64,000 nt of DNA. Origin: Enchytraeus crypticus. Its lineage: Eukaryota > Annelida > Clitellata > Enchytraeida > Enchytraeidae. Both the position numbers and the translations under genes were made by a program. The DNA is taken from the NCBI GenBank assembly GCA_905160935.1, contig CAJHZI010000555.1, positions 389,501 to 453,500 of the forward strand. The letters are read 5' to 3'. Below the pieces are notes generated by a model that saw only the letters and a list, made by a program, of their open reading frames with translations, was not told the DNA's origin and did no database searches. Of this stretch, positions 1 through 62,635 are shown one piece after another (position 1 is the first letter of the stretch; every line of letters begins with the position of its first letter).

Positions 1-461
1 ATTGATTGATTGATTTGTGTAGTGAGGTGTCCTGCAGTAATGGAGTAGAGAAATTATTGATTGATTGATTGATTTGTGTAGTGAGGTGTCCTGTAGTAAT
101 GGAGTAGAGAAGTTATTGATTGATTGATTGATTTGTGTAGTGAGGTGTCCTGCAGTAATGGAGTAGAGAAATTATTGATTGATTGATTGATTTGTGTAGT
201 GAGGTGTCCTGTAGTAATGGAGTAGAGAAGTTATTGATTGATTGATTGATTTGTGTAGTGAGGTTTCTTTAGTAATGGAATAGAGAAGTTATTGATTGAT
301 TGATTGATGGATTTATGTAGTGAGGTGTCCTGTAGTAATGGAGTAGAGAAATTATTGATTGATTGATTGATTTATGTAGTGAGGTGTCCTGTAGTAATGG
401 AGTAGAGAAATTATTGATTGATTAATTGATTGATTGATATGTGTAGTGAGGTGTCCAGTAG
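1..461. repeat. 59-bp minisatellite carrying a copied 3' splice site
   Basis: About eight tandem units of 59 bp, each with (ATTG)n, TGTGTAGTGAGGTGTCC, then CTGCAG or CTGTAG followed by TAATGGAGTAGAGAA. The last unit runs into the first visible RANBP3 exon, where CCAGTAG precedes the exon bases TAATGGAGTAGAGAA. So each unit looks like a copy of the acceptor plus the first 15 or so exon bases. Confidence 0.88.
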
Positions 462-3400
462 TAATGGAGTAGAGAAGAAGGAAGGAGGTCATGTGAACGA
501 CAGCTCTGTTGTAGCGAGTGTTGTGTTTGGACAAAATCTCACTGAACGTGTACTGGTGGGTTCTCTTGTCTCTCTCTCTCTCTCTGTGTCTCTCTGTCTC
601 ATGTACACACTCATGTATTTAGTGTATTTGTACATGTACACACACACACACATCAATGTACTAGAACATACACACACTTTCACATATATCACATAACATA
701 CATACACTCACACATATCCACGTGTGTGCACATACACACAGACAATCTAGCACCTATAACTCAATCAGCTGTGTTGCCTAGATTTTAGTGTATTTGTATT
801 ATATTTTATATGTATTGAGTTGTATTTCTGTTGTATTGTATTGTATTGTATTGAGTATTTGGTTGTATCGTAGCTACCAGAGAGCAGTGAGAGAGGGGAG
901 ACGGGTGGGGGAGGGTTTGTGTTTGGTAGTAACTGTGCTGATAGAGCCGTCTTCTCTAACGTATTATATTGTATTATATTGTATTGTATTGTATTCTATT
1001 GTATTGTATTGTATTGTATCGTATTGCATCGTAGCTACCAGAGAGCAATGAGAGGGGAGACGGGTGAGGGAGGGTTTGTGTTTGGTAGTAACTGTGCTGA
1101 TAGAGCCGTCTTCTCTAACGTATTGTATTGTATTGTATCGTATTGTATCGTAGCTACCAGAGAGCAGTGAGAGAGGGGAGACGGGTGGGGGAGGGTTTGT
1201 GTTTGGTAGTAACTGTGCTGATAGAGCCGTCTTCTTTAACGTATTATATTGTATTATATTGTATTGTATTGTATTATATTGTATTCTATTATATTGTATT
1301 GTATTGTATCGTATTGTATCGTAGCTACCAGAGAGCAGTGAGAGAGGGGAGACGGGTGAGGGAGGGTTTGTGTTTGGTAGTAACTGTGCTGATAGAGCCG
1401 TCTTTTGTAACGTATTATATTGTATTGTATTGTATTGCATTGTATTTTATCATAGCTACCAGAGAGCAGTGAGAGAGGGGATACGGGTGGGGGAGGGTTT
1501 GTGTTTGGTAGTAACTGTGCTGATAGAGCCGTCTTCTCTAACCATTCTGCTACGTCCTCTCAGCCACATGATGAGACCTCTGACAGCACTGCCCCGGGTA
1601 GTACCTGTCTGTCTGTCTGTCTGTGTGTCTATCTCTCTCTCGCTGTCTGTCTGTCAGTCAGTCTGTCAATCAGTTGATTCAGCCAGTCAGTCAATCATTC
1701 AGTCATTCAGTCAGTCGATGACTGAAAGAGAGTAATTTCTTTACTCGTAAATTATAATTCTCTGCATTGCTGGAAGCTATGCTATTTACTGCTGGTCTTT
1801 TCAGGAATTTTTTCTTAAATTATAAATGTTGATTGATTGATTGAGGTAGACACGGCACAGCAGTCTCTAGCGGAGTCAGCTGCTCAGGTTCAGGCTAGAC
1901 AGAGCAAGCCAGAGCTGAGAGAGGTGGAGGTGAGGACAGGTGAAGAGAACGAGTCCAATGTATTCCAGGTCTGTCTCTGTGTCTGTGTGTGTGTGTCTGT
2001 GTGTGTGTTTTGTGAGATGTTTAACAATTTTATGCTAAACAAATGTATTTAACAGTGTTTAATGATAAACAATGTGTGTTTAATGTGTTTTGCACAGTAT
2101 ATCGCTAAACAACATGATTTAACAGAGTAATGGTAAACAATGTGTGTTTAATGTGTTTTGCACAGTATATCGCTAAACAACATGATTTAACAGAGTAATG
2201 GTAAACAATGTGTGTTTAATGTGTTTTGCACAGTATATCGCTAAACAACATGATTTAACAAAGTAATGGTAAACAATATGTGTTTAATGTGTTGTTGCGT
2301 AGTTTAACGCTAAGCTGCACGTGTTTGACAAGTCAGCTCTGTCGTGGCATGAGAGGGGGCGGGGTCTAATACGTCTCAATGACATGTCCTCCAGCGATAA
2401 TAGACCTGTGCAGTCCCGCATCGGTCTCTGTCTGTCTGTCTGTCTGTCTATTTATCTGTGTGTCTGTCTTTCTATCTGTCTATCTATCTATCTATCTGTG
2501 TGTCTGTCTGTCTATCTATCTGTCTATGTATCTGTCTATCTATCTGTCTATCTATCCGTCTATCTATCCGTCTATCTATCAGTCTATCTATCAGTTTATC
2601 TATTAGACTATCTATCAATCCATCAGTCTGTCTATAAGTCTATCTATCAGTTTATCAGTCTACCTCTCTGTCTATATATCAGTCTATCTATCAGTCTATC
2701 CATCAGTCTTTCTATCAGTCTACCTATCAGTCTACCTCTCTGTCTATATATCAGTCTATCTATCAGTTTATCCATCAATCTTTCTGTCAGTCTATTTATC
2801 GGTCATCTATCAATCTGTCTATCAGTAGCATTCAGTAGCTATGCTAGTATTAACTTATAAATGTAGTTGTGTTACTCAGGGACATCAGTTGATTGATTGA
2901 TAGATTAATTGACTGATTGATTGATTGATTGACTGATTGATTGATTGACTTATTGATAGATTGATTGATTGATTGATTGTCAGTGATGCGCACTCACGGC
3001 AGCCTACGTGTAATACTCAATGCACTGATATGGAGTGGCATGCATGTGGAGCAGATGAACGCCAAGTCCATTCAGATCACAGCTGCAGACGCTGACGAGG
3101 GCATCAAAATATTCCTCATCTCTGTTAGTCCTGCTACAGAATACTTTACGTTATAACATTGAACAGCTCCTCTCTCTTAGTCCTACTGCAGAAAACTCTA
3201 CGTTTTTATTTAAACAAAGGAACGGTATGGGCATATTATGATCTGTATGGAACAGAGAGCATTGGAGAATGCCTATTCGTATCCTGACCCTGGTTATACT
3301 TGGCCTCTAGGGAAGAAGAAAATGATGATGATGATGATTGAACGTCTTGTTAATTGGAGCAGATGATAGACTGATGATAAGAACTGATATGATTGGTTTG

Positions 3401-6063
3401 GCTGATTGGTTAACAAGCTTGACCAGTGAGACATTGAGCTCTTACATAGCCCTGACAATTTTGATACCGAAATAAACATATATATTTAATCATAGCGTCT
3501 TTTTTTAAATTATGTATTTTATGGTTTTTCCAATTAATTTTAAAAATTGTTTGATTGATTAACTTGATTGATAAATTATTTCTTGATTGATTAATTGATT
3601 GATTAACTTGATTGATTATCATTTCCTAATTGATTGATTGATTGATCAGGCGACGCCCAATGAATCAGATCAGATGTACAGAGCTATATCAGCTCGTGTG
3701 GAGCAGCTGAGAGCCACCCACCCTTCCCCTAACCCACCCACCTCTCTCAGTCCTCGTGAACAACAACAACAGCACAACACTAGCGACAGCAGCAGCAGCA
3801 GCAACGAGGTGGCAGCTGTCAACTCTAGCTCAGCCAGTCAGCTGGGCAAGAGAAGCAGCTCTGCACTGCTGGGCGTGTCCAGCACAGCAGCTGCTGCAGC
3901 TGATAGCAGCTATGCTGAGAAGAAGCTGAGGTGAGTGATGAAGATTTTCTCTCTCATTGTAAAGTCACGTTTGAGCTGTAAAAGCTGTCTAAGATAGAAC
4001 TAATTGAGTTGATGCTACGTATAGCAGAGCTAATTGAGCTGATGCTGTGTGTAGCAGAACTATTTGCTGTGTTGCTACGAATAGCAGAGCTAATTGAGCT
4101 GATGCTGTGTGTAGCAGAACTATTTGCTGTGTTGCTACGTATAGCAGAGCTAATTGAGCTGATTCTGTGTGTAGCAGAGCTGTTTGCTGTGTTGCTACGT
4201 ATAGCAGAGCTAATTGAGCTGATGTTGTGTGTAGCAGAACTATTTGCTGTGTTGCTACGAATAGCAGAGCTAATTGAGCTGATGCTGTGTGTAGCAGAAC
4301 TATTTGCTGTGTTGCTACGTATAGCAGAGCTAATTGAGCTGATTCTGTGTGTAGCAGAGCTGTTTGCTGTGTTGCTACGTATAGCGGAGCTAATTGAGCT
4401 GATTCTGTGTGTAGCAGAGCTATTTGCTGTGTTGCTACGTATAGCAGAGCTAATTGAGCTGATGTTGTGTGTTGCAGAGCTAATTGAGGTGATGCTGCGT
4501 ATAGCAGAGTTAATGGAGCTGATTCTTTGTGTAGCAGAGCTATTTGCTGTGTTGCTGTGTGTATCAGAGCTATTTGCTGTGTTGCTGTGTGTATCAGAGC
4601 TATTTATTGTGTTACTGTGTGTAGCAGAGCTATTTACTGCGATGCTGTGTGTAGCAGAGCTATTTGCTGTGTTGCTGTGGGTGTATTAGAGCTATTTGCT
4701 GTGTTGCTGTGTGTATCAGAGCTATTTTCTGTGTTGCTGTGTGTATCAGAGCTATTTACTGTGTTGCTGTGTGTAGCAGAGCTATTTGCTGTGATGCTGT
4801 GTGTATCAGAGCTATTTACTGTGTTGCTGTGTGTAGCAGAGCTGATTGAGCTGATGCTGTGTATAGCAGAGCTATTTGCTGTGTTGCTGTGTGTATCAGA
4901 GCTATTTACTGTGTTGCTGTGTGTAGCAGAGCTATTTGCTGTGATGCTGTGTGTATCAGAGCTATTTGCTGTGTTGCTACGTATAGCAGAGCTAATTGAG
5001 CTGATGTTGTGTGTTGCAGAGCTAATTGCGGTGATGCTGCGTATAGCAGAGCTAATGGAGCTGATTCTGTGTGTAGCAGAGCTATTTGCTGTGTTACTGT
5101 GTATAGCAGAACTATTTGCTGTGTTGCTGTGTGTATCAGAGCTATTTGCTGCGATGCTGTGTGTATCAGAGGTATTTGCTGTGTTGGTGTGTGTAGCAGA
5201 GCTGATTGAGCTGCTGCTGTGTGTAGCAGAGCTATTTGCTGTGTTGCTGTGTGTATCAGAGCTATTTGCTGTGTTGCTGTGTGTATCAGAGCTATTTGCT
5301 CTGTTGCTGTGTGTATCAGAGCTATTTACGGTGTTGCTGTGTGTATCAGAGCTATTTACTGTGTTGCTGTGTGTATCAGAGCTATTTGCTGTGTTGCTGT
5401 GTGTATCAGAGCTATTTGCTGTGTTGCAGGCTGGAGACAGAGAGGGGGGACAACGTGAGCTCAGCGGGGGGTGATGAGTCCAATGACAGCAGTGCACTCG
5501 ACCCTGAGACTGAGGGTAAGTTCAGTGTCTTCACTCGAAAGCGATGTCAGTGATGGGCGAGCCCAGGCTTGGAACCCCGCATATACTGATCTGCTGTCGA
5601 ATATCTTACCGGTGTAATTTACATTGTAATTAGCGTAGGATTAATGAATTCTTTTAAAACTTTAATCTAATTTTATTCTAATAACTTTCAAAAAAGTACA
5701 GACTGAAACGTTTCTGCTGATGATAGAAACAAATGGTGGACTGCTGCCGTCCTATGTTCTGTACAGAACTCAAGAAACTGACGATGAAAAGTTTCTAAGT
5801 AAGTCGATTTAATGTGGTCACTGAGGAAGGCAGGTGGAAACCTCGGTGATGTTTATGACAGGACAATTGTGATGTGATGTAATGTGTGAAGGCATTATAC
5901 CTACTCATGAATGAATATTTTCGAATGTAGTATTTTACGCCTCGGGCCTGTGACTTGTTGAGAGCAGCAGAGACTAGTAACGTGTGTGTTGATTGTGTGC
6001 ACAGCGTCTAACGAAGGCTTTCCTTCATCTCCAGCCCTGCAATCCTCATCCTCTGAGTCATAA
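459..6063 (+). CDS. RANBP3: Ran-binding protein 3 orthologue, C-terminal part (3' partial gene in window)
   Basis: In animals RanBP3 is a nuclear cofactor of exportin CRM1 that binds Ran-GTP. Exons I can join in frame: about 462-555, 1564-1597, 1850-1968, 2303-2423, 2984-3123, 3650-3930, 5430-5515 and 6005-6063 (stop TAA 6061-6063). From 1564 on they give 279 residues. Visible in order: an FG-type motif (VVFGQNLTERVL) matching the conserved FVFGQNMSERVL of vertebrate RanBP3; SLAESAA; a full Ran-binding domain with TGEENESNVFQ, WHERGRGLIRLNDM, MRTHGSLRVILN and GIKIFLIS; then a Ser/Gln-rich acidic tail. Introns have GT-AG ends and phases agree throughout. The first visible exon could start at 459 or 462 because two acceptor AGs lie close together, and earlier exons lie outside the window. 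The identity is known from family sequence recall; the exon joins are read directly. Confidence 0.92.
789..1563. repeat. Intronic long-unit tandem repeat with ATTGT microsatellite spacers
   Basis: Five copies of a block of about 90 bp (GTAGCTACCAGAGAGCAGTG ... AGAGCCGTCTTCTCTAAC) begin near 862, 1031, 1150, 1320 and 1453, separated by variable (GTATT)n runs. The last copy lies directly against the acceptor of RANBP3 exon 1564-1597. The 556-860 part of the intron is CT-rich and (CA)n microsatellite. Confidence 0.88.
2030..2302. repeat. 68-69 bp tandem repeat in register with the 2302 splice acceptor
   Basis: Three units with TTTTGCACAG at about 2097, 2165 and 2233, followed by TATATCGCTAAACAACATG. 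The true junction at 2302/2303 is one period further on and reads TTGTTGCGTAG then TTTAACGCTAAGCTGCACG. The resemblance runs across the splice site into the exon, so the units look like decayed copies of acceptor plus exon start. Confidence 0.85.
2303..3123 (+). CDS. RANBP3: RANBP3 exons coding the core of the Ran-binding domain
   Basis: Exon 2303-2423 ends in phase 1 and joins 2984-3123 to read ...PVQSRI-VMRTHGSLRVILN... The block holds the diagnostic RanBD motifs WHERGRGLIRLND and GIKIFLIS. The intron between them is filled with (TCTA/TCTG)n and TTGA repeats. The domain finishes in the next exon (3650-3930) with MYRAISARVEQLRA. All conserved elements of a pleckstrin-fold RanBD appear present, so Ran-GTP binding is likely kept; that last step is inference. 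Confidence 0.92.
2424..2983. repeat. Intronic (TCTG/TCTA)n and (TTGA)n microsatellites
   Basis: 2424-2825 is a compound TCTG/TCTA tetranucleotide tract and 2888-2980 is a TTGA tract. It fills most of a RANBP3 intron. The open frames across it come from the repeat and not from coding constraint. Confidence 0.9.
4005..5429. repeat. 30/60-bp minisatellite filling the last large RANBP3 intron
   Basis: About 1.4 kb of units built from GAGCTATTTGCTGTGTTGCT and GTGTGTATCAGA, with a longer variant (GAGCTAATTGAGCTGATGCT) in the first half. The periods are multiples of three, so all frames stay open and mimic a Leu-rich protein. The final unit ends in TTTGCTGTGTTGCAG, which is the acceptor of exon 5430-5515. 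Confidence 0.9.
5523..5613 (-). repeat. SINE family A, tRNA-derived, partial inverted copy
   Basis: Reverse complement carries GGTTCCAAGCC (B-box-like), GGGCGAGCCC and the CTTTCGAGTGA tail. It starts only about 8 bp after the donor of RANBP3 exon 5430-5515. Confidence 0.75.
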
Positions 6064-6360
6064 CATGACGTCACGTGTGGGGGAGTGGTGACGTCATCCT
6101 CTTGAGTCATAGCATGACGTCACGTGTTACTCATCCTCGGAGTCATAGCATGACGTCACGTGTGGGGGGAGTGGTGACGTCATCCTATGAGTCACGGCAT
6201 GACGTCACGTGTGGGGGAGTGGAGACGTCATCCTATGAGTCACGGCATGACGTCACGTGTGGGGGAATGGTGTCTCATTCTCTGAGTCATAACATGACGT
6301 AACGTGGGGGGGAGTGGAGACGTCATTCTCTGAGTCGTAGCATGACGTCACTTGTGGTGG
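6043..6360. repeat. 47-bp tandem array rich in TGACGTCA and CACGTG, overlapping the RANBP3 stop codon
   Basis: About seven units, each with GAGTCATAGCATGACGTCAC followed by GTGTGGGGGAGTGG and another GACGTCAT. The first unit contains the last codons and stop of RANBP3 (TCT GAG TCA TAA). TGACGTCA is the palindromic CRE/ATF core and CACGTG an E-box core. Any binding is untested. Confidence 0.85.
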
Positions 6361-6894
6361 AATGATGACTGTTGTATGTGGGTGTGTACGCAGAATAATA
6401 ACAACTAGATACGTGAGGGGAGGGAGGAATTAAGCCATAGTGTCTATACTTGTGCAATCTATTAATACGAGTTTTACGTTCGTTTTGTCGTGTAATTGCG
6501 ACAGGAGGTGATGTACAGAGAGGTTGCTATAGTTAGCTAGTGACATCCACAACGGTAACACCTCGTCATGAGCTTTTAACTCTGCTTTTATCTGAACGGT
6601 TGAGTTGACTGATACACTCAGCGGAGACTGTGTGAAAGAAGAGCAAGTGAAGTCACGATGTAATGTATAGTGCTGACGTAACATCCCTGACATTAACACC
6701 TCTGTGATCTGTGCCAGTAGAGACTGAGAGTGGTAGAGACAGAAGATTTCTTGCCTGCTCTATTGGTCTATCAACTCGTGTGTATGAATGCCTTTCGTTA
6801 CGTGATGCGTTGAAGTAATCAGAAGTTCTCTATGTTTCTGTTTTATGTTCTGGATTAAAATGTTTCCTAGCCTCGTGCAATATTAATGTGTGCT

Positions 6895-6945
6895 ATCGGG
6901 ACGTCCCTGACATCATCCCTGGATGAGGAAACGGACGTTAAACCT
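6895..6945 (+). repeat. Family E short dispersed repeat
   Basis: GACGTCCCTGACATCATCCC, then TGGATGAGGAAACGGACGTT. Further copies, mostly inverted, lie near 14930, 18553, 22688, 24606, 25697, 28230, 43338, 44658 and 57808. It shares a GAGGAAAC-GACGTTAA core with the tail of SINE family A. Confidence 0.6.
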
Positions 6946-7056
6946 TTAATACTAGTATTAACATCGAACTGAGAGTCCTCAGTCTGATTAAGATTTACTG
7001 TGACAAGCAGGACTTTAACGTTCAGTGTTGTCAGTCTAATACGATGTTGATGACGT

Positions 7057-7326
7057 CAAGCTCACAACGTGACGTTATCACGTCGTCGTGTTACACAACG
7101 TGACGTTATCACGTCGTCGTGTCGCGTAACGCGACGTTATCACGTCGTCGTGTCGCGCAACGCGACGTTATCACATCGTCGTGTCGCGCAACGCGACGTT
7201 ATCACGTCGTCGTGTCGCGCAACGCGACGTTATCACGTCGTCGTGTCGCACAACGCGACGTTATCACGTCGTCGTGTCGCACAACGTGACGTTATAACGT
7301 CGTCGTGTCGCACAACGTGACGTTAT
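7057..7326. repeat. 28-29 bp CpG-rich palindromic minisatellite
   Basis: Nine to ten units of GACGTTATCACGTCGTCGTG followed by TCGCGCAAC. Each unit is strongly self-complementary (GACGT/ACGTC, TCGCG/CGCGA) and unusually CpG-dense against an AT-rich background. It lies between two converging genes. 7327-7767 is unique AT-rich sequence with nothing I recognise. Confidence 0.88.
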
Positions 7327-7767
7327 GTTGTTCATTAGGACTAGATAGCGCTCAACAATTGTGACCCGTTGTAACATGGTCACTAGTAACGTATGGATAT
7401 CTTATAGATATTATTGCCTAAAAACTTTAAATAATATAATTAAAAGTTTATATTTGGACTTACTTATTATCATGACTATATCAATATCTTATACTTAAAT
7501 ACTTGACCTACTTATACGTAATATTTTGATCTACTTATATTTTATAATTATCTTGGCCTATAAAATGGTTAGTCAACAATTGGTTAATAGCTTGAAGAGA
7601 TACATTTACATAGGAACTGGAACTGAATTATAATTCTAACACGTGTGTTCTCAGTGGTTTACTGTTTAATATTGAATAACAAGTTGACGTGAGAAATGTC
7701 AGTATTTGTTTCTCCAGTCAATGCTTCGATGTGACAGCACGAGCTTTGTGTCTTGTCTCTATATGGG

Positions 7768-7890
7768 TCTACCTGACGACCCTATACTCTCCTAGGTCTA
7801 CCTGACGACCCTATACTTCCCTAGGTCTACCTGACGACCCTATACTCTCCTAGGTCTACCTGACGACCCTATACTCTCCGAGGTCTACCT
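7768..7890. repeat. 28-29 bp tandem repeat covering the end of the membrane-protein gene
   Basis: Four units of CCTAGGTCTACCTGACGACC plus CTATACTCT. On the minus strand the first unit contains the final codons GGT AGA CCT CGG AGA GTA and the stop TAG of the gene at 7869. The other units continue into the 3' flank. Confidence 0.85.
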
Positions 7891-10037
7891 TGTCGACCTG
7901 GTGACTCGCCCACAGATCTGGTTTGAATGAACGCCGCACAGCCCCTCGAGGGACCCCCTAGCGCCCCTGATGTCTGCCCCCCCGCCTGGTTCTTCTTGAA
8001 GCGATGGCTCCCAGGTCTCTCCCCCTCCTCCTCCCACCCTGACCTAGCTCCCTGCCTCACCCTAGAGTCCTCATCATAGCCTGGTTGTTGTCGTCCACCC
8101 CTGATACACGCTGTGATGCTGGGCTCATGCTGTCTAGTCGTATCGTAGGCTAGGGTGTTGTGATGAAGCATTGCTCGGGCAGGATGTCTGAGATCAGTGT
8201 CATCATCATCCTCATTACTGATGTCAGCTGACCGTACCTCCTGATCGTAGTCTACTCTCTGTACATCAGAGTTATCAGCGTGAACTGTGGCCTGCGACAC
8301 GCTGTAGTGATCTGCCTGTGCGGGTTCAAGTCTGCGCTGAGCCCTATCTAGGTACTGGGTTCTGTACCCTGTAGATGGAACCCTATCTGTATACTGGGTT
8401 CTGTACCCTGTGGAGAGAACCCTGTCTGGGTACTGGGTTCTGTACCCCGGAGATAGAACCCTATCTTGGTTAAGGGTTCTATAAACTGCCGTTGGTGGCT
8501 GTGAATTCTCTAACCTCTCTTCACAAGTACATACAAGCTCCTCCCTCTCCTGTCTATCAAATCTTATCCCTTCCTCTGATTGGCTGGTTTCTTTAGAACA
8601 TGTCGCTTGACATGAATTTAAATTGCAATATCTTTCAAACGATTGGCGGCCTCTGCTGGAAGGCGTGGCTTGATTTGAAGGAATGTTATTGTAGAGGCTG
8701 CTATTGGCTCCTACAGTTGTCACCTGATAACTGCTGCCGCTAGGGGTGGGACCCCCTCTTGACTCCCACCTCTGTCCTGAGTATATTCCAGGGGTCTGAT
8801 CCCCCCAATGAATTATTCTACCCGGTGTGCCCCTGATGGACGTGTTAGCCGCACTGCCTGGGCCCCCCGCCCGTGAGAGCTTAGCCGCCACCGCTGACTT
8901 GAGCCTTCTATAGCTGTCCCTAGTCGAGCGTTCCTTAAACACCTGATAACAACAACATCATCATCATCTACATCATCAGCCTTCTGTAGTTGTCCCTAGT
9001 AGAGCGTTCCTTAAACACCTGACAACAACATCATCATCATCATCTACATCATCAGCCTTCTGTAGCTGTCCCTAGGGGAGCGTTCCTTAAACACCTGACA
9101 GCAACAACATCATCAGTATCATCGCTTTCGAGTGAGGAAACTGACGTTAATCTTAGCTTTACCAGCTTTAGCATCAATATCATCAACAACGCCATCATCA
9201 ACATCATCTTCAACATCATTATCATCAATATTATCATTTTAATCAGCCATTCTTGCAGTCTTAGAACTATGGACCTTCTAAGTAAAAGATTCATCGTCAG
9301 TTTCCTCACTAATAACTATATAAGGTTTGCAACATTCTACTTAAGACCTTTTTAGCTATACTTTTATTAATCTAAACAAGTAAACCATTTGTTGAAACAA
9401 AATTGAGTTCCTGAACGGTGCCATCCGGTGACCATAAGACAATCAAGAAGATTCTTATCCTAGTGTATCTCAGATTAGTTTTAGCGGAGGCTTTGAAGTG
9501 AAATTTTGTTTTGAAATTACGACTGAATTTGGTGTTACTAATGTTTTCTCTGATACAAAACACCCTTCTCAGGCGGTTAGCTTCATTCTGGGGTGAGAAA
9601 CATAGGTATCTACGTCTAGATGGCGCAAGACTGGGCTCATAGTGTCGTCACAGCTAAGCAATCAGCATGCAGGTCATTGATCGTCCGAAGTTGTTCAGAA
9701 CAGAGACATTATTTTGACGCTACGTAGATTGATTGATTGATTGATTGATGGATTTATGAGATACCTGATATTCTTTGAGATACTTGTCTATTTCTCTATC
9801 CTCTATGATCTTAGCCTGTCTCCTGTGTATCTGCGCTGAGATCAACAGTACTACTGCCATACCATACACTATCACCACCACGACGATGTACACAGCTGCC
9901 CCACTGTCACCCCTCAGCATTCCACTCAACGTCCCGTCGCCTTGGTTACCACGCACGTCACCTTTCGTCATGACAACAGAGTCTGACGTCATCAGCGCGG
10001 AGTCATCTGTGACGTCACTGAGCAGAGATGAGTTCAT
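7869..10037 (-). CDS. Single-pass membrane protein with RGDS ectodomain and long basic tail (KCNE-like topology)
   Basis: Two exons: 10037-9765 (91 codons) and 8942-7869 (357 codons plus stop). The donor GTATCT and acceptor TATCAG join in phase 0 as KEYQ-VFKERS. The ATG is the first Met after an in-frame TAA directly upstream. There is no cleavable signal peptide. Residues 1-47 are short and hydrophilic with N-glycosylation site NSS and RGDS at 42-45; about 49-69 is one hydrophobic span (YIVVVVIVYGMAVVLLIS); then basic HRRQAK and a tail of 380 residues with four YRTQY-DRV-ST repeats (about 236-291), an acidic EDDDDTD run and a Gly/Arg-rich end. A short outer N-terminus with no signal, a VYG-type span and a basic juxtamembrane stretch recall KCNE/MinK beta subunits, but those tails are much shorter. 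I treat it as an unidentified type III membrane protein. Confidence 0.75.
8906..9107. repeat. 76-bp triplication of the exon-2 acceptor and exon start
   Basis: Three copies of CTGTCCCTAG-GAGCGTTCC followed by TTAAACACCTGA, with TTAAACACC at 8935, 9011 and 9087 (period 76). Only the lowest-coordinate copy leads into the long coding exon. The other two keep acceptor CAG and the first codons (VFKERSTRDNYRRL or close) but then run into (ATG)n and a stop codon. Confidence 0.88.
9112..9172 (+). repeat. SINE family A tail fragment
   Basis: CATCGCTTTCGAGTGAGGAA, then ACTGACGTTAATC and TTTACCAGCTTT, with no tRNA-like head. It sits at the far edge of the triplicated exon start, in the intron of the membrane-protein gene. 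Confidence 0.7.
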
Positions 10038-20843: not shown

Positions 20844-22020
20844 CGCGAGAGAATTAATTTTAATTATAAGAAGGAATGTATTTAGAATATAGTTACTACT
20901 ATTCTGTGTTGTTGAGAATATTTACATAACACAGATCTATACTACGATACTGAACTGTTAACATCTTACCCCATTCTGATCATAGACCTCCAGTGTACCG
21001 GGCTGTCCCTGGTAAACAGTTAATCAAATACAATAATTAGAATTAACAAATATTGTTAACACCTCAATCATGCGGCACTAATTTATTATATCTTCTTTTA
21101 TTTCGAGGAATGATCGAATCCTACTATATTGCATTTGGTACACAACCTGTAATATTTAAGTTGATTAACTACACAGATAAAATGTTTTTTTCAGCAAAGA
21201 CAAAAACACATAAGTGACATACAATACATCAACAGCTATACCTAGTACCCACATCTAACGCGAGAGAAATCGGTCGTCAGTAAGATACAGAGTATCTTAT
21301 CTAGAATATCACTACCTTATATTAATTTAGTGACGGTAGCTCGAATGTGCTGAGTCATCTTGAAGATGAGCCTTTGCCTTGTGAACCTTGACGTAAAGCT
21401 CACTAAAACCTCCCTACTTATTGAGTCCTAGAGAGTCAGCGGATATTAAGAGAATACACTTGGCACATTTGATTGCTGCGGGAACAGGTTAGGGTTAAGG
21501 TTAGGGCTATGGTTAGGATTTGGGTTAGGATTAGGGTTAGGATCAGGGTTAGGGTTAGAATTAGGATTAGGGTTAGGGTTAGGGTTAGGATTAGAGTTAT
21601 TATTAGGTTTAGGGTTAGGATAAGGGTTAGGACTAGGGTTAGAATTAGGGTTAGGGTTATGGTTATGGTTAGGATTAGGGTTACGATTAGGGTTATTATA
21701 AGGGTTAGGATCAGGGTTAGGGTTATGGTTAGGGTTAAGATTAGGGTTAGGATAAGGGTTAGGGTTAGGATTAGGGTTAAGGTTAAAGTTAGGATTACGG
21801 TTAACTGGGATTCGTGTACTACTGACCGGATGTCCAGGTTGACCTGGCTCTCCATTGATTCCAGGCAGTCCAAGATCTCCTTGTTCTCCTTTCTGACCCT
21901 GATAGCCCTGTAGTAACAGCCATACACAGTTTTAATAATACCGGTATATTATACAGCTTAATACAAAAATAAAACAATAGAGAAAAGAGAGAGGGATAGA
22001 GATAGATAGATAAAGAGAGA

Positions 22021-30379: not shown

Positions 30380-33300
30380 AGAGAGAGAGATAGCAAGAGA
30401 GAGTGAGAGAGAGAGAGAGATAGAGAGACTTTTAGCAATACTATTAGACGTATAATGAGAGAGAAGGCAGAGAGTAATGTAGAGACTCACGTGTTGTCCT
30501 GGATAACCAGGTAGTCCAGTGTCGCCCTTGTCGCCTTTCTCCCCAGGCGACCCCTGAATTCCAGGCGACCCCTGAAGGCCTGGCGACCCGTAGGGGCCTG
30601 GGTCTCCCCTTTCTCCCTGTTACAGAGCAGCAATTGCAAAGTCGACCTCCGTTTAAAGCTAGAATTCTTTATGAAAGAATTATATTTTGTAATAATAAAT
30701 TGTAATAATAAATTGTAATAATACACTTGTTGGAGCCAAAGACGATGTCGGTAAGATATTCGACCGACGGTCGAATATCTTACCGAAATCCCCTATTTGA
30801 GACTCTTCCATTCGTTTAAATTTTTCTAGCAATTTCTGGATCCTAGGCGCTCACCAACCCAATACCCTTTCTGACGTTGGTATGGATCTTAGTGCTTCAG
30901 TCGCCTTCTACGACACGTGCAGTCACCGGTTGGTAAATTCCTTAAACAATCCAGACACAATACGGGGTAAAGTAACTACAATTAACTAAACATAAAAATA
31001 ATTAAAAATTGTCTTTATTATATGATAATGTCTATAAATAAAATTTATAAGCTTAATGGTGATAAAGTCTGCTTAGGGTCATAAACTCTATCCAAAAGCT
31101 GCAAATTGCATAACATCTGTAACTCAAAAAAGGGTAAAAAAACACATATTTCTTTATATTTCTAAAATAAAATCTTAACGCCCACCTTTTCACCAGGTTT
31201 TCCTTCCGGTCCTATTTGACCTGGTTTACCCTGAAACATCAGCCAATGTGTCACGATATTTAATGCTAAACATCCTATGAAAAACTATATTTATTTATTT
31301 ATTTATTGCTTTATTTTAGGCGTAATAACCCATACCCATACATGAATCTTGCACATACAACAATGCAACAAAAATCAGAAAAGCAAATAGACTGTGCATA
31401 AATTGAGCTATAAGACAATTACTTATAGAATTAGGCATACAAGCTATTCTATATGATTTTGAGTGTTCATTTCTTTCCACAATAAATTCTATGTAGAAGT
31501 AAGACTAGAGGGCCGATATTTGATTCTTTACCTATATGTAGAATAAGTAGAAATTATAGAACTGAGGAAGGCTAAGGCATATCACCTCATAAGCCATATT
31601 ATTCCCAAACTATAGGCTATATTACGACGTGGATAAGGCATTGCTATTTGTGAAGGGATTAACTCGTTAATCGATGTTGTGCTCTTTATGGAGCGTAAAA
31701 GCAGTGAGTATGAATATGTACCTTGGACCTGCCGCTTGGCAGAACACTAGAGAGAGATAATATGTAGATTTAAGAGACAGGATCTAGTAACTCAGTCATG
31801 GTAAGAGGCGACTAACAGAGATACTAGAGCAAATGCCTCTGTCGTATATAGAAGAGCTATGCTCAGATGTTTAGATGGCAGACACTCTAAATGTTTCAAT
31901 GGCTCTGTGTGTAGCGCGTCAGATAACGTCATGAAAATTATCATGACTGTTCCTGAGGTCATGGAATCAATTCCCGGTAGAGCTGACCTGAGAGTGAAAT
32001 CTCGGACGTTCACAGGGCTGGTAACATGGATAATTGACTAAACTGCCTAATCATGTGAATAAAAGTGACAGATATCATTATGGATGATCATTTCACTACA
32101 TAGCAAAGTCTATCTGATCGAAAACCCATAGTAGATATACATGTATAGTAGATATTATAGATATATAGATATATCGCTGATCTAACAAAGCATTGATCTA
32201 CTTACAGGGTATCCTAATGGGCCCTGTGCACCCTGAAATAATCAATCAGTCAATCAATTAATTTAAGAAAAAACTAAGTAGTCACTCGATTAATCAATCA
32301 AATAGTCAATTATTTAATCAATCGATCAATTAATCGAACACGCTGTTGTTATTAATTATTGATTGATAGCTACTACTAGGGGACTGATGTTATTGATTGA
32401 TTACTCTTAGTAATGGACTAATGTTATTGATTATTGAATTCTATTAGTAATGGACTACTGTTATTGATGATTGATTGATTGCTGTTACTAATGGACTACT
32501 GTTATTGATGATTGATTGATTGCTGTTACTAATGGACTACTGTTATTGATGATTGATTGATGAATGTTAGGCCCACTATGGACAAATGTTTTATTCACTG
32601 CAGCTGCACTAAGAAAATAAAATATTCAGCTTGCTGCACTAATCATGAATTTAAGTTTTAATTAAAATGGGATCAGATTTTAGGTTAAAGTGAATACCAT
32701 ATAAGAGTCATAATCTTCTCTCATTTAAATTCTTAGGCAGGCTTTGCTTACTGCTGAGCCGAAATTTATAAGCCATGTGAAATGTTTGGAATTTTATTTT
32801 AGTGCTACTTCATATAAATTAATAAAATAACTAAATAAAAAATAACTCAAATAGTTTCTCAATCTGTCATTGTTTATTCCAACCATATGGTAAAGTTTAA
32901 CTATATATATATACAGACTTGTTGATTAATTGATTGATTGATTAATTGATTGATTGATTGATTGATTACCGTGGGCCCAGCTGTTCCAGGCAGACCATCG
33001 ATACCGTTGATACCTGGAAACCCATCCCTACCTGGAGGTCCAGGTTCACCCTCAATCAATCAATCAATTAATAAATTAGTCAGTCAATCAATTAATAAAT
33101 CAGTCGATTGTTCGATCAATCAACCAATCAATCAATCAGTCCATCAATCAATCTTTTGATCAATTTCATAATTATGTAGTTCATTTCATTCATTTCATTC
33201 ATTCATTCATTCATTCATTCTAAAGTTCTTAAAATATTAAAAATCTTTCATAAAATTCGTTTATAAAAAGAAAAAGAACATTTGTTATTTAGGATGTCTG

Positions 33301-36134
33301 TTGCAAATTTTATCAAGAAACCGAGTCAGCCGGGTCTAACAACAACAACAACAACAGCAATAACAACAACAACATAGAATTTAGAGATTAGATAAATTTT
33401 ACATTATAAATAATAATATTACTCGTTATACCTTTAGCATAATAACTTCATACAGCGACCCCTGAAAACAATCAATCAAGTCAATCTAATGGTTTTATTT
33501 TACAAAAAGCATTAGTATTTAAAGTATTAATAGTAATAGTATTTAATATCCATTAGTATTTAACGTCTCTTTCATCAGTGAAAGATGATCAATGACAGCT
33601 CGGTTTAGAACAGCCGGGTTAACCAGAAGCTGCTAGGTTTAAAACACCCGAATTTACATCTACCTCTTAATACAAAACGTCACGTAGACTTTTATCGATA
33701 TCTTCTTCAGCTTCTCCGATGTTCATTGTTGCTCTGATCATCTCTGTGTCAGTTAACTGCATCCATTTGCTTAGACTCTTAATAAACGTCATTCGTTGTC
33801 GACCCTTGCAGCTTTTGTCTTCTATTCCTGTCACTACGGTATTTTCAACTATTTTGTTCCGCATAATCTGTCCGAAAAAACTTCATCTGTTGTCGTCGTA
33901 TTCGGTTCAAAAGGTCACGACAAGTTGACATTCTTTGTATAACATCTTCATTTTTAACGTGGTCTTTATAAGATATACGTAACATTCTTCTATAGAACCA
34001 CATCTCTGTTGCCTCAAGTTTCGATTCCATTACAGATGAGATTGTCCAAACTTCACTTCCATATAACAATATTGGTTGAATATAGCAATGAAGAAATCCT
34101 TTTTTGGTATCAATTTATAATTTACGGCTTCTGAAAATCTTTGACATCTTATATCTTATATAACTTACCGATAAAGACTTATAGGCTATCTTATATAAAT
34201 CTTTATCGGTATAATATTAGTTTAATTGCTGTGAAACTACCAACTTAACTACCAGTAACTTATTGCTACATTAACCTTCGTGACGGTAGCTCGAGTGTGT
34301 CGAGTCGTCTTGAAGAGAAGCCTTGTGCTTCTGAACCTTGACGTTAAACAATCTAAAACCTATCAGTATAATAGAAAATAATGAAATATGAAGAACAGGA
34401 GTCTGCGAGATTTTCAAACCTTGACCTTGATGACCTCAGTGTAACCAAACGAGCCGTCGTTCAGTCGAATTGATCTCTTGGGCGACTGATAAATCAATCA
34501 ATCGATCAATCAGTCAATAAATCAATCGATCGATCCATCAATCAATCAGTCGATCAATCAGTCAAACAATCAATCAACCGATCCATCAATCGTTTAATCA
34601 ATCAATCGATCGATCGATCGATTAATCAATCAATGAATCAATCAATCCATCAATCAATCCATCAATCAATCAATCAAATAAATAAATCATTCAGTCAATC
34701 AATCAATAAAATAATTAATCAATCAATCAAGCAAGCAGATAACCAGTCAGTCTATCAATTTAAATATCAGTCAATCGACCAGTTAATTAATTTATAAATC
34801 GACTGATTATGCAATTGAACACTCCTTGCAGTCAGCCGATCGACTGAAAAATAAATCAATTAATCAATCAATCAATCCATTGGTTGATCAATTAGCGATG
34901 TGAGGTGGGTGCCGATAGACAAGTGTAGATGTTCAGTGTGTGCTCGTAACTGAGAGACAGAAAAATCCTTGGATTAGTCTTCCTGTTGAGATACAGGGCG
35001 ACTAGGAGAGAGAGAGAGAGACAGAGAGAGAGAAACACACCCAGAGAGAGAGAGAGAAAAGATAAAGTGAGAGAGAGAGATACATAGATAGAGAGACACA
35101 GAGAGACACAGAGAGAGACAGAGAGAAAGAGAGAGAGAGAGAGAGACAGATAGAGATACTTTGGCCACGTCAGAATCGTTGTAGAGGTATTCACTGTCGC
35201 CCTTCTCTCCCTGTACAGACATAGACAAGCAAAGATTGTGTGTACAGACATAGACAAGCAAAGACTGTGTGTACAGACATAGACAAGTAAAGACTGCGTG
35301 TACAGACATAGACAAGTAAAAACACTGTGTGTACAGACATAGACAAGCAAAGACTGTGTGTACAGACATAGACAAGAAAAGACTGCGTGCACAGACATAG
35401 ACAAGTAAAGACTGCGTGTACAGACATAGACAAGTAAAGACTGCGTGCACAGACATAGACAAGTAAAGACTGCGTGTACAGACATAGACAAGTAAAGACT
35501 GCGTGCACAGACATAGACAAGTAAAGACTGCGTGCACAGACATAGACAAGTAAAGACTGCGTGTACAGACATAGACAAGTAAAGACTGCGTGCACAGACA
35601 TAGACAAGTAAAGACTGCGTGTACAGACATAGACAAGTAAAGACTGCGTGCACAGACATAGACAAGTAAAGACTGCGTGCACAGACATAGACAAGTAAAG
35701 ACTGCGTGTACAGACATAGACAAGTAAAGACTGCGTGCACAGACATAGACAAGTAAAGACTGCGTGTACAGACATAGACAAGTAAAGACTGCGTGCACAG
35801 ACATAGACAAGTAAACACTGTGTTTGTACTGGTAAAGCTTTGAAGCAGTTAAGTTTAGACTTTAGACTATTTATATTCAGTTAAATTTTTGTGCTTCAGG
35901 CTAGTTATAAGTTATTTTATTTCTTCTTTTAAAATTGTTACTACTTTACAGAATTATTTTACTAGTTCATCATTGGTAAGTGGTATTTTGTGTCCGGATT
36001 TCTGAAGAATAGACCAATCGTGTTCTGCACGTGTCGTAGTTGGCGACAAAGCACTAAGAGCTAAACCAACCATCATCAGAAAGGGCATTCGGATGATGAT
36101 GCTGATGATGATGATGATGATGAGAGAGAGAGAT

Positions 36135-36168
<34 letters not shown>

Positions 36169-39100
36169 CGATGACGATGGTGATGATGATGAAGATGATT
36201 ATGATGATGACGATGATGACGATGACGATGACGATGATGATGACGATGATGATGATAATAGAGTTAAGCGCCGCTTACCTTGTCTCCCTTAGAACCGGTT
36301 CGACCCTGTAAGAACAAGCAAAAGAATTACAATTAATCAAACACGTATCTTCACTTTCTCTTATAGTAAGTTTACTGGCAGAAATATTTTCAAAACACGG
36401 TTCTTAATGTTATTGAACAATTCGGTTTGAATTAATTCGGATAATTAATTCAATCAATCAATCGTTGAGACCTGAATTAGCACAACGTCAGGTCCGTGGC
36501 GTAAACATGCGCGAAGAGTAATTCTCCAGGGAATGATAGAATTCTAAAAGCTCGAGAATGACGAATTAAATATTAAAATTAACTTACACTCGACAGTGCT
36601 TATGCGTTGCGCACAATTTAAAACGTATATTTTCTTGTAATCGAAGTTCACTCAAATACACCTTAATTTAGATAACATAATAAATTAAAAAGACCAACTT
36701 TGAAAGGCTTTAATCAATAAATACCAAAGCTAATGATGAAGTCCAGAGAAGGAATTTTGATTGCAATTTCCAAGTAAACTAAATTAAATCTTAAAACTTA
36801 AATCTAAATTTAATATTTGGTACGGTAGCTCGAGTGTGAGAAGCTTTGTGCTTCTGGAACTTGATGTTAAGCACACTATAACCTACGACTACACACCTTT
36901 ATTTGAATGTCTACATAGCATAATGTGTAAGAGAGCTGGGTGACGTCATGATATTTAGCATAACTCTTTCTGAAGACCTGGGATCAGGTTAGGGTTAGGT
37001 AAGAGTTAGGGTTAAGTTAGGTTAGGGTTATGGTTAGGGTTATGTAAGGGTTAGGGTTAGGTTAGGTTAGGGTTATGGTTAGGGTTAGGTAAGAGTTAGG
37101 GTTAGGTTAGGTTAGGGTTATGGTTAGGGTTAGGTAAGGGTTAGGGTTAGGTTAGGTTAGGGTTATGGTTAGGGTTAGGTAAGGGTTAGGGTTAGGTTAG
37201 GTTAGGGTTAGGGTTAGTGTTAGGCTTAGGATTAGTGTTAGGGTTAGGGTTAGGGTTAGGATTAGGGTTAGGATTAGCGTTTATGTTAGTGTTAGGGTTA
37301 GTTTATGGTTAGGGTTAGGGTTAGGTAATGGTTAGAGTTAGGGTTAGGGTAACCCTAACCCTAACCCTTAACCTAACTTAACCTTCCTGCAGAGCTGATC
37401 ACAGAGTACAATCTCGGACATTCACTGGACTGGTAATGTGGATAATTAACTAAACTACGTTACGGTTAAATGTTTGATATTAAAAGTGTCAGATATCATT
37501 GTGGATGAGCTTGCATTTTGATATGTGTTGAACTTTGCTTTATGCTTCTTTCATCACCTTGTGCAGAAAGGCTCTGAGATGCAATAATTGATTGATTGAT
37601 TGATGTTATTATTATAAACTAATTAGATATTGCGCTAAAATTGACTAACCGGCGGTCCAGCCTGCCCGTCCAAACCTATAGGCCCCTGTATAAACATAAA
37701 ACATCATATAAATCTATAGGCCCTTTTAATAAAGGGGCGGGATTTAGCGCACTCTTTTAAGCTGCGCGTCAGTTGAAAGAAGTTAAGCTCCATCGCGCCG
37801 GTTAGTACTTTTTGAGCGACGATCTTGGAAGACCAAGTGACAAGTGTTGACAGCTTTGAAAGAAAAAAATCCCGAGGGTGTTGGAAAGTTATTCTTAAAT
37901 TTGCGCCGGCTGCAATTGATGCGCCATCGAAAGCTACGATTACTATTAATCATGGAGAGGAATGGAGGAAATATCGAAAACTACAAAAACAGCAACCAAG
38001 AAAGGAAACTATGTAGCACACGCGGTATGTCATGTGTGTAGCCATACGAACAAAGAATAATAGTAATAAGTTAGAGAAACTAAAGCTTAGCAGATCACGA
38101 ATGTATACAATATTTTAGTTATTAACCGAGATTAATAAATGCATGGACCTGCCATTAGACAGGTAGGTGAATAACTAGGATATGATACAAAATATTAACT
38201 AGTTAAGATAACTTACAGGAAACCCAGGGTAGCCTCTGTAACCTTTCTGCCCCTAAAACATATTAATATCAATCTAGACCAATTATCGTACAATTTATCT
38301 TAAAAAGTTAAAACAAAGCAATAATTTGAAGTGCCAAATGAAAAGTATTTTAACACTTAAAATAAAAAAGCTAATTTTAACGTCAGTTTCCTCACTCGAA
38401 AGCGAAGTTAGTAACGGGCGAGCCCAGGATTTGAACCCCGCACATACTGATCCGCGGTCGAATAGCTTACCGACATCGGAACTGTCTCCAGTTAATACAG
38501 AAATGAAGCTAACCTCTGTCTATACACTTTTAACCTTAAAGAACTCTAGCAGCTAGAAATCAAATGAATTGTTTGTTATTAAGTCATTAGCTATAATTAT
38601 TGCATACTCCTTTCCCTACACATCCAATATTCTTAATGGCTAGTCCTGAACATATATCAAACTGTGATTTACAATACAGAATGAGTACGTAGTACGTTAT
38701 CTCACTCGTACATGGGCACAATATTGATCAATCCATCAAGTCAATAAGGTCATGAAGTCAGCGCACTTTTTATTTCGATTGGGACTCGTGTGCTGCCTTC
38801 TTTTTCTCGTACCTAGGATTGCAAGTGTTGCTTGCACACATCGGTGCGCAGAAGTGCATACTGCTACTTTACGTTTAAATCTGATCGTTTCTGCGAAAAG
38901 AGTTTGCCTATGTCTTCTTCAGTTCAACTACACATAAAGACTTGAAGTGTTTGGTTGGTCAAGACCTATTTCCCAGTATTAGGAAAAAACATTTTAATTA
39001 TATAGTAATCTGTAATTAACCGGTGCTCCCGGGGGACCTGGGGGCCCCCTGAGAACTGCCCCCCATTTCTGTTCCGTATCGTTCGGCGGATCAGCTGCGT

Positions 39101-46300: not shown

Positions 46301-47242
46301 TATTATTGTTCATAAATGTATTGTTGATATATACCTCTATTGCCTCTAGCGATATATCGAATAATACGTCCAAGGATCAAATTCTTACAGCTCAATACAA
46401 CCTTTATAATACTAATACGAGTTGTGGACATCCCTATTGGGGCTGGTTAAATTTTAAATTTTTGAAAATATTATATGCTTTGTTGTAAATGATGGATAAT
46501 TTTCAAGTTCTCTAACGTCACACGTTTCCATACTTAAAAAAGTCTTTTTGTTTTCTTTTTATCTCTTTCTTTCACTCCTCTGTTACTGTAGTTCTCTGCT
46601 TCTAGATCTCTCTACACCTCTCTCTCTCTCTGTCTCTCTCTCTGTCTCCTCTCTCTCTCTCTCTCTGTGTCTCTGTCTCTTATCTATACACCATGTGATC
46701 ATATCACTGTTCTACATGATATCACTACTGGCTGGGTGCTATCAAATTCCTCGTAAAGGTTCTTCTTTCAAACAACTTTTCTCATGAAGCTCTATGATCT
46801 AATGACGAGGCCTCTCTGATCAAGATATCACGAGTTCAAACCTCAGCCCGGACAATATGTTCATTACAAAGCACTCACAGTTCATAGTACCATCATATAT
46901 ATTATCTTTAGTTTAGTTTATGTTTAACGGTTTAATTAAAGCAACTAGGCTGCAGCAATTGTTAAAAAATCTCAAAAATAAATGGAAAATCCCGTCACTA
47001 GTTAACTGGGATTCATGGGAAGTTGATGATGTTTAATGTTTTACTTGAAGCTTAATTATCCATAAAACAAGGTCGTGAAGCACACACGCTCACTGGTACG
47101 GTTGGTCATAGTACAGCATAGTATGGACTGGTACGGAACAATACACTGAGCAAAAGAGACCAGGCCTATCAAATCTATGCGCACAACAACAACAACAACA
47201 CATAAATAAATATTAATACTATCTCCTGTAGTATGAAATAGC

Positions 47243-47326
<84 letters not shown>

Positions 47327-47368
47327 CATAAATAAATATTAATACTATCTCCTGTAGTATGAAATAGC

Positions 47369-47416
<48 letters not shown>

Positions 47417-47458
47417 CATAAATAAATATTAATACTATCTCCTGTAGTATGAAATAGC

Positions 47459-47531
<73 letters not shown>

Positions 47532-62127: not shown

Positions 62128-62239
62128 GACATTAGAGCCTCACAGAACTTTCCTTTTCCTTGTATTGGTTAGATTAGAGTATTCATAGCACGCTTGATTC
62201 GTGCCCAGGAGGGTAAAGGTTTAAATTCTAGTCAAACTC

Positions 62240-62635
62240 TCTCTTACAGTAACCCTACCACCAGTATGGAGATGTGGAAACAGATTTTAGTAAAACTTAG
62301 CTTTATAACTTTATTGCATGTCATCCAAAAGGCTACAAATGAAGAAGTCCTGGAAAGAGTTGGCACAGATAGACAGTTGATAAATGTATTAAGAAATAGG
62401 AAGAAGAGATGGATAGGACACATTCTAAGGGGGGGAAGATCTATTAAGAGAGGTCGTAGAAGGTACAATGGAAGGAAAGAGAGGCAGGGGCAGGCCGACA
62501 TTAGGTATGTTAGATAATTTAAAGACCCACTCATATGTGGAAATGAATAGGAAGGCTGAAGATGGAGAAGAGTGGAGGCGTTATATACCATGGACCTGCC
62601 AGTAGGCAGTGCACTAAGAGAGAAGAGAGAGCATG
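62240..62635 (+). mobile_element. LINE 3' fragment with intact 3' tail
   Basis: Frame reads TNEEVLERVGTDRQLINVLR, NRKKRWIGHILRGG, GRRRYNGRKERQGQADI, then after a stop the untranslated end with TTATATACCATGGACCTGCC, AGTAGGCAGTGCACTAAGAG. This is the C-terminal, post-RT segment of a non-LTR element (the DRQL...RWIGHILR pattern). Confidence 0.78.

What the first reader, a model, noticed from the sequence alone, without database searches (positions are those of the whole stretch)
1..9107. Tandem arrays that copy 3' splice sites and exon starts
In at least three introns (arrays 1-461, 2030-2302 and 8906-9107) the tandem unit contains the acceptor AG and the first bases of the adjoining exon, in register with the real junction. 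Two others (4005-5429 and 35211-35828) end exactly at an acceptor. If general, tandem duplication in this genome is seeded at intron-exon junctions, giving many decoy acceptors per intron. I know of no named phenomenon that covers all of these together. The alignments are read directly; the mechanism is inference.
Basis: partly seen in the sequence, partly recalled or inferred. Interest (0 to 1): 0.85.

Follow-up and report, generated by a model that had tools for sequence, protein, structure and literature searches.

The report
Tandem repeats copying splice junctions
In this worm genome some introns carry tandem copies of their own splice site plus the first or last bases of the neighbouring exon, a phenomenon already named "mirages" in lancelets; here it looks like a by-product of frequent local duplication rather than a special mechanism.

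Summary
In arrays 1-476 and 8902-9115 the unit contains the acceptor and 18-41 nt of the real exon; 2034-2313 overlaps its exon by 11 nt; two arrays stop at an acceptor. In loci outside the window 11 of 101 acceptors have their exon start echoed in their own intron and 9 of 77 donors their exon end, 0.07 expected each. So it is not specific to 3' splice sites. It has a name, amphioxus "mirages". The genome is very probably the annelid Enchytraeus crypticus. Junction seeding is weakly supported: intron-internal segments echo two to three times more often, and one array straddles a stop codon; but array ends are 2.4-fold denser at acceptors. Best reading: frequent local duplication, tolerated across a coding boundary while the exon-side copy stays intact. 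A separate signal: (TTGA)n lies just before acceptors on the sense strand (23 of 127; complement 2 of 127), and genome-wide CAGG follows such runs 11-24 times more often than the average one-letter variant.

The parts
1..476 (+). Acceptor mirage: 59-bp unit x 7.9 (the array also continues left of the window), last copy spans the acceptor (cag|tag at 458-459; cagtag|t 3 nt on is equally possible) of a RANBP3-like exon
   Evidence: TRF; echo score 23; 6 intron copies at 79-84% identity
459..555 (+). RANBP3-like coding exon, first of those seen (SSNGVEKKEGGHVNDSSVVASVVFGQNLTERVL)
1829..1844 (+). (TTGA)n run abutting the acceptor of exon 3 (exon from 1846)
2034..2313 (+). 68-bp array x 4.1 overlapping the start of RANBP3-like exon 4 by 11 nt; diverged similarity further in
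2303..2423 (+). RANBP3-like exon 4 (FNAKLHVFDK...); homologous to human RANBP3 (PDB 2y8f), so the exon side is taken as ancestral
2889..2979 (+). (TTGA)n run ending 4 nt before the exon 5 start (2984)
3546..3646 (+). (ATTG)n run ending 3 nt before the exon 6 start (3650)
3996..5427 (+). 30-bp array x 47.7 ending 2 nt before the exon 7 start (5430); no exon part
6045..6212 (+). Array whose first copy contains the last coding bases and the stop codon (TAA 6061-6063) of the RANBP3-like gene: the same picture at a coding/UTR boundary
   Evidence: frame read by eye
8902..9115 (-). Acceptor mirage: 76-bp unit x 2.8, includes the acceptor and 41 nt of the exon that starts at 8942 on the minus strand; both intron copies keep AG
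35212..35820 (-). 29-bp array x 20.9 ending 1 nt short of the exon start (first base 35210, minus strand) of a collagen-like gene
33052..33153 (-). (TTGA)n (sense strand) abutting the acceptor of the collagen exon 32970-33050
32922..32967 (-). (TCAA)n (sense strand) starting 2 nt after the donor of the same collagen exon

Best explanation
These are mirages: tandem duplications of roughly 30-80 bp segments that happened to straddle a coding boundary. Introns here suffer frequent local tandem duplication. A founder duplication across a splice junction leaves one intact copy next to the exon and one on the intron side. The protein is unharmed only if the exon-side copy is used, so the intron-side copies, decoy splice sites included, are free to multiply and decay. 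The spliceosome must prefer the exon-proximal of several near-identical sites, as exon definition would do. Shown: anatomy, frequency in the sample, both boundaries, exon-to-intron direction. Inferred: the duplication mechanism, and that decoys are ignored in the transcript.
For: Exon start echoed in the own intron at 11 of 101 acceptors, exon end at 9 of 77 donors outside the window, 0.07 expected each. Copies are direct only (inverted 0 of 126 and 0 of 100) and mostly fade with depth into the exon (13, 7, 4, 0 of 126 at -6, +10, +20, +30, then 2 and 1 at +45 and +60; donors 9, 4, 1, 0, 0, 0 of 100). Direction: the duplicated pieces lie in conserved exons, e.g. kinesin KSLSALGQ with its donor in L076 (8 further copies), kinesin DIDNL with its acceptor in L070 (9), myosin NHDERNY in L079 (7), and RANBP3. 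Intron-internal segments echo more often than junctions (35 of 118, 43 of 122, 17 of 93). Decoys can match the real site: VFKERS 9.1 and 10.5 against 10.7, L076 7.0 against 7.0. Of copies with 68% identity or more, 28 of 31 keep AG (RANBP3 exon 1 left out, see observation) and 14 of 15 keep GT. All 42 of these AG/GT decoys would shift the frame or add a stop if used. One array straddles a stop codon, so a splice site is not required.
Against: Outside the window, exon-side ends of minisatellite arrays are 2.4-fold denser at acceptors (11 in 5.9 kb) than in nearby intron (10 in 12.8 kb; p = 0.008 taking the intron rate as exact) and 3.9-fold denser than in -500..-25 (22 in 45.6 kb), which uniform placement does not predict; donors 6 in 4.5 kb against 13 in 9.6 kb. 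The cases are uneven: 10 of the 11 acceptor and 8 of the 9 donor cases outside the window lie in kinesin and myosin genes, one each in P450, none among the homeobox acceptors; 0 of 23 window donors. No transcript data were at hand.
Confidence: 0.8

Rival explanations
1. Junction seeding: something about 3' splice sites, such as T-rich or (TTGA)n tracts, R-loops or pausing, makes them preferred founders of tandem duplication.
For: Excess of array ends at acceptors, 2.4-fold against nearby and 3.9-fold against wider intron (p 0.008). Microsatellite coverage rises towards acceptors. Three of 13 acceptor echo cases (RANBP3 exon 1, L079 at 1385 and 3548) have (TTGA)n inside or beside the unit.
Against: Donors show the same echo rate and little or no end excess. 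Minisatellite coverage is flat from -400 to the junction. Intron-internal segments echo two to three times more often.
Confidence: 0.15
2. The copies serve splicing: extra branch points, tracts or spare sites that strengthen recognition of a weak junction.
For: Some real sites in mirages are weak (L079 score 0.0, L071 2.9, L060 3.7, RANBP3 exon 1 3.7; median of other acceptors 8.6). AG and GT are kept in most copies.
Against: Others are strong (VFKERS 10.7, L072 and one L074 site 9.3). Some copies have lost the AG (L073 2 of 6, L079 1 of 7). All 42 decoys tested would damage the protein if used.
Confidence: 0.07
3. Chance similarity, wrong exon calls or assembly error.
For: Exon calls rest on homology and splice-site scores, not RNA; the window junctions were set by reading and five junctions elsewhere were set by hand.
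Against: Other-intron control 0.07 expected. The real junctions outside the window lie in recognised domains, RANBP3 in a solved family. Copies differ from the junction by up to about 30% and recur in several genes, unlike a stuttered assembly.
Confidence: 0.03

Closest known systems
Mirages of amphioxus (Adh3, globins BflGb6 and BflGb9, troponin C; lancelet PGBD5) - PMC3087553 and PMC3902484, passages read
   Same: Minisatellite-like tandem copies spanning an intron/exon boundary, at both 5' and 3' boundaries, many copies with AG or GT; reported there not to disturb splicing.
   Different: Here in an annelid, not a cephalochordate; TRF units 34-76 bp (amphioxus 10-72 and about 150-160 bp); frequency measured in a sample; length polymorphism and splicing not tested here.
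Internal tandem repeats at exon-intron boundaries of human genes in segmental duplications - PMC2812944, passages read
   Same: Minisatellites (about 30-bp units on average) at exon-intron boundaries.
   Different: There some repeats form novel introns or are kept in exons, with transcript support; here exon-proximal use is inferred.
Intron gain by tandem duplication (Rogers model; potato RdRp, PMC4974935, seen only as search listing and start of abstract)
   Same: Tandem duplication carrying splice signals.
   Different: There a new intron arises; here existing introns grow.
AC/GT complementary repeats at the ends of fish introns (Lin et al., as described in review PMC7404189, passages; original not read)
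   Same: Strand-specific simple repeats next to splice sites.
   Different: Here TTGA at acceptors with fewer TCAA at donors; both ends together in 2 of 62 introns, about 1.5 expected, so no support for a bridge.

Membership tests
Mirage (minisatellite-like tandem duplication of an intron/exon boundary) | Tandem repeat unit spans the boundary, with exon and intron parts | tested here: met
   TRF arrays cross 11 of 127 acceptors and 5 of 100 donors; echo test
Mirage (minisatellite-like tandem duplication of an intron/exon boundary) | Occurs at both 5' and 3' boundaries | tested here: met
   13 of 126 acceptors, 9 of 100 donors; in the window acceptors only
Mirage (minisatellite-like tandem duplication of an intron/exon boundary) | Many but not all copies keep AG or GT | tested here: met
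   28 of 31 acceptor copies (six RANBP3 exon 1 copies left out: TG at the called site, AG 3 nt on), 14 of 15 donor copies
Mirage (minisatellite-like tandem duplication of an intron/exon boundary) | Does not disturb the mature mRNA | not testable with these tools
   No transcripts at hand; only that all 42 decoys tested would damage the protein if used
Mirage (minisatellite-like tandem duplication of an intron/exon boundary) | Length instability between haplotypes or individuals | not testable with these tools
   One assembly only
Bridging intron-end repeats (fish AC/GT type) | Complementary repeats at both ends of the same intron | tested here: not met
   For TCAA/TTGA: 2 of 62 introns with both; margins 6 and 15 give about 1.5 by chance
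Duplicated (cassette or mutually exclusive) exons | Copy has both splice sites of an exon | tested here: not met
   As a rule copies hold only the junction side of the exon: echo 0 of 126 at +30..+62 (but 2 and 1 of 126 at +45 and +60, not looked into) and 0 of 100 at -62..-30

The most novel reading that the evidence does not exclude
In this annelid the 3' ends of introns are partly built of (TTGA)n: the run replaces the usual tract, sits in one orientation only, and grows because it is a good 3' splice-site context; larger junction arrays then arise from such runs, so splice sites act as birthplaces of satellites. The genome-wide excess of CAGG two bases after (TTGA)n would be the trace of this.
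Probability: 0.25. Interest if true: 0.7.

Novelty: new member of a known kind. Interest (0 to 1): 0.5.

Why it matters
In the papers found here the name mirage is tied to lancelets. Finding the same thing at about one junction in ten of a sample from an annelid suggests that it appears wherever local tandem duplication is intense, and supplies natural tests of how the spliceosome picks one of up to ten near-identical sites. Such arrays are also raw material for intron growth and gain, and a trap for gene prediction in such genomes.

Tried and rejected
Junction seeding as the main cause: weighed against intron background and donors, left with a modest acceptor excess. Base-pairing of 5' TCAA with 3' TTGA runs: no co-occurrence. 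Donor-side genome-wide excess: AGGT before the run 88, AG[ACT]T 513, so none. TTGAT as the usual branch point: in 9 of 102 acceptors without runs at -50..-15 and 12 of 102 at -150..-115, so no. A dispersed element as the source of the run+CAGG excess: a common short element has a TTGA 8-mer upstream in 1 of 12 matches of a loose motif (at least three of the 12 look unrelated to it) and run+CAGG in none; 4 of 5 local run+CAGG sites are called exon starts, two of them close P450 paralogues on one contig, and 0 of 5 run+C[CGT]GG sites are (these local scans included L003-L008; a first motif, missed the element).

Limits of the junction set: outside the window it comes from 30 of 151 homeobox matches, 30 of 97 P450 matches and 57 kinesin or myosin matches (of 128 and 81) that lay in twelve fetched regions. 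These 117 hits gave 102 acceptors and 77 donors; dropped were acceptors more than 45 nt (homeobox 130 nt) from the hit edge or with G at -3, donors more than 25 nt off, and all homeobox donors. Window junctions were set by reading. Five others were set by hand: acceptors in L079 (1385 and near 4100), L071, L080 and a donor in L073; the L071 and L079 (1385) acceptors lie beside TTGA runs and the L073 donor beside a TCAA run, so they add to those counts, and L079 at 1385 adds to the echoes. One more correction (L079 near 2349) found no match, so that acceptor stayed out. L001-L008, fetched by repeat similarity, were kept out of junction counts.
Full report
What the genome is. The window lies in a 524,188,772-base, 802-contig genome. 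Its homeodomains include a Lox2-type sequence and several labial-type ones (these labels are from my own knowledge). Contig C551 has six listed homeodomain hits, five of them on one strand, which by eye fit Hox1, Hox3, two Hox5 and Hox7, the arrangement that the Enchytraeus crypticus genome paper reports for one scaffold (PMC8460440, passages read: 525.2 Mb, 910 scaffolds). I take it as E. crypticus (inference, about 0.95). It is not a lancelet.

The window. The + strand gene at about 459-6063 is RANBP3-like (Ran_BP1 domain 5.3e-15; PDB 2y8f, RAN-binding protein 3, 3.8e-34). A minus-strand collagen-like gene follows (Collagen 5.4e-20). Three overlap an exon by 18, 11 and 41 nt; two stop 2 nt and 1 nt short of the exon start. 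Array 2 is the weak one: the exon part taken alone does not beat the control (score 9.0), though in-register identity of 16-17 of 29 is beyond chance (P 0.0008 for 16 or more).

Is it general? I built a junction set from homology: 25 acceptors and 23 donors in the window, 102 and 77 in loci found through homeobox, P450, kinesin and myosin families. TRF arrays cross 8 of 102 acceptors and 5 of 77 donors outside the window, and 3 of 25 and 0 of 23 inside. Over everything it is 13 of 126 and 9 of 100, no difference between acceptors and donors (Fisher p 0.82). The cases are uneven: 10 of the 11 acceptors and 8 of the 9 donors outside the window are in kinesin or myosin genes, one each in P450, none among the homeobox acceptors; the window has 2 acceptors and no donor.

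Anatomy and direction. Copies are direct, adjoin the junction, and mostly fade with depth into the exon (13, 7, 4 and 0 of 126 at -6, +10, +20 and +30, then 2 and 1 at +45 and +60, which I did not look into). Duplicated exon pieces are conserved coding motifs: kinesin KSLSALGQ with its donor in L076 (8 further copies), kinesin DIDNL with its acceptor in L070 (9 further copies), myosin NHDERNY in L079 (7 further copies). The exon is therefore taken as the source and the intron copies as derived. Ages differ: 97% identical copies in L060 and L071, about 70% in L073.

Decoys. With splice-site scores trained on junctions outside these arrays, intron-side copies are as good as the real site in several cases (VFKERS 9.1 and 10.5 against 10.7; L070 4.9-7.4 against 5.8; one L074 copy 9.8 against 6.0; L076 7.0 against 7.0). 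Of 31 acceptor copies at 68% identity or more 28 keep AG, of 15 donor copies 14 keep GT. Left out of the 31 are the six copies of RANBP3 exon 1, which read TG at the called site but have an AG three bases on, as does the real junction; RANBP3 exon 4 gave no copy at that threshold. All 28 AG decoys and 14 GT decoys would shift the frame or add a stop. So correct expression needs the exon-proximal copy to win; exon definition would do that (inference from general knowledge of splicing).

Seeding or tolerance? Minisatellite coverage outside the window is about 0.17 from -400 to -30 and falls to 0.12 and 0.08 at the junction (score 80 or more). Intron-internal 32-mers find an echo in 35 of 118 and 43 of 122 cases near acceptors and 17 of 93 near donors, two to three times the junction rates. 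One array (6045-6212) straddles the stop codon of the RANBP3-like gene, TAA at 6061-6063, the same outcome without a splice site. Against pure randomness, exon-side array ends outside the window are denser at acceptors (11 in 5.9 kb) than in nearby intron (10 in 12.8 kb; 2.4-fold, p 0.008 treating the intron rate as exact) or in the wider intron (22 in 45.6 kb; 3.9-fold); at donors 6 in 4.5 kb against 13 in 9.6 kb and 27 in 35 kb (1.0- and 1.7-fold) (p). Microsatellite coverage does rise towards acceptors, 0.03 to 0.10. I conclude: background duplication plus tolerance, with a possible minor acceptor preference.

Known or new. [quoted passage not shown] lancelet PGBD5 adds cases (PMC3902484 passage). 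Human genes in segmental duplications have boundary repeats too (PMC2812944 passages). My word searches of the held open-licence library showed no report of this in annelids; subscription papers are not held. An earthworm metallothionein paper reports minisatellites within a first intron, and the passages I saw say nothing of boundary copies. Hence a new member of a known kind.

The (TTGA)n signal. TTGA 8-mers on the sense strand lie within 60 nt before 23 of 127 acceptors, the complement before 2 of 127 (Fisher 8e-6). At -400..-250 it is 5 against 4 of 119, but at +250..+400 after donors TTGA again leads, 9 against 2 of 93, so the bias is strongest at, not confined to, acceptors. Exact ATTG runs within 80 nt: 19 of 127 acceptors, 0 of 100 donors. 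Within 60 nt after donors, TCAA 8-mers are in 7 of 100 and TTGA in 0 of 100. The acceptor cases fall in 12 loci counting the window once, four of them in L079 alone. Genome-wide, TTGATTGATTGATTG is followed two bases later by CAGG 321 times, by C[CGT]GG 40 times and by CA[ACT]G 88 times, 24 and 11 times above the average single alternative; some matches are clustered, so these are not independent events, and most sites were not checked for exons. The donor-side pattern shows no excess. In 25 acceptors with a run, the last TTGAT lies a median of 9 nt from the exon. Whether the runs are selected as splice context or only tolerated there is open.

Noticed in passing
window 1829-1844, 2889-2979, 3546-3646, 33052-33153 (sense minus); also L019, L024, L034, L052, L058, L059, L071, L073, L074, L075, L079: (TTGA)n 8-mers just before acceptors, in one orientation (23 of 127 acceptors, complement 2 of 127); CAGG excess after such runs genome-wide.
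   Followed up: yes
donors in window and loci: (CT)n runs within 80 nt after 8 of 100 donors but before 0 of 127 acceptors, although pyrimidine tracts would be expected at acceptors.
   Followed up: no
window 6045-6212: Tandem array whose first copy holds the last coding bases and stop codon of the RANBP3-like gene; units carry ATGACGTCACGTG-like words.
   Followed up: partly
window 21487-21803 and 36987-37350: Interstitial arrays of the telomere-like repeat GGTTAG in or next to the collagen-like gene.
   Followed up: no
window 22844 (+), about 56925 (-); L008, L010, L027, L038, L048, L075: A dispersed short element with words like GGCGAAGTCGGTAAGATACTCGACCGCGGATCAGT, perhaps a SINE or MITE.
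   Followed up: partly
window 33845-34114 (minus) and 62173-62517 (plus): Open frames that look like fragments of LINE reverse transcriptase (by eye).
   Followed up: no
window 47183-47531: Segments of 90 and 126 bp repeated at 100% identity with (ACA)n, so probably recent.
   Followed up: no
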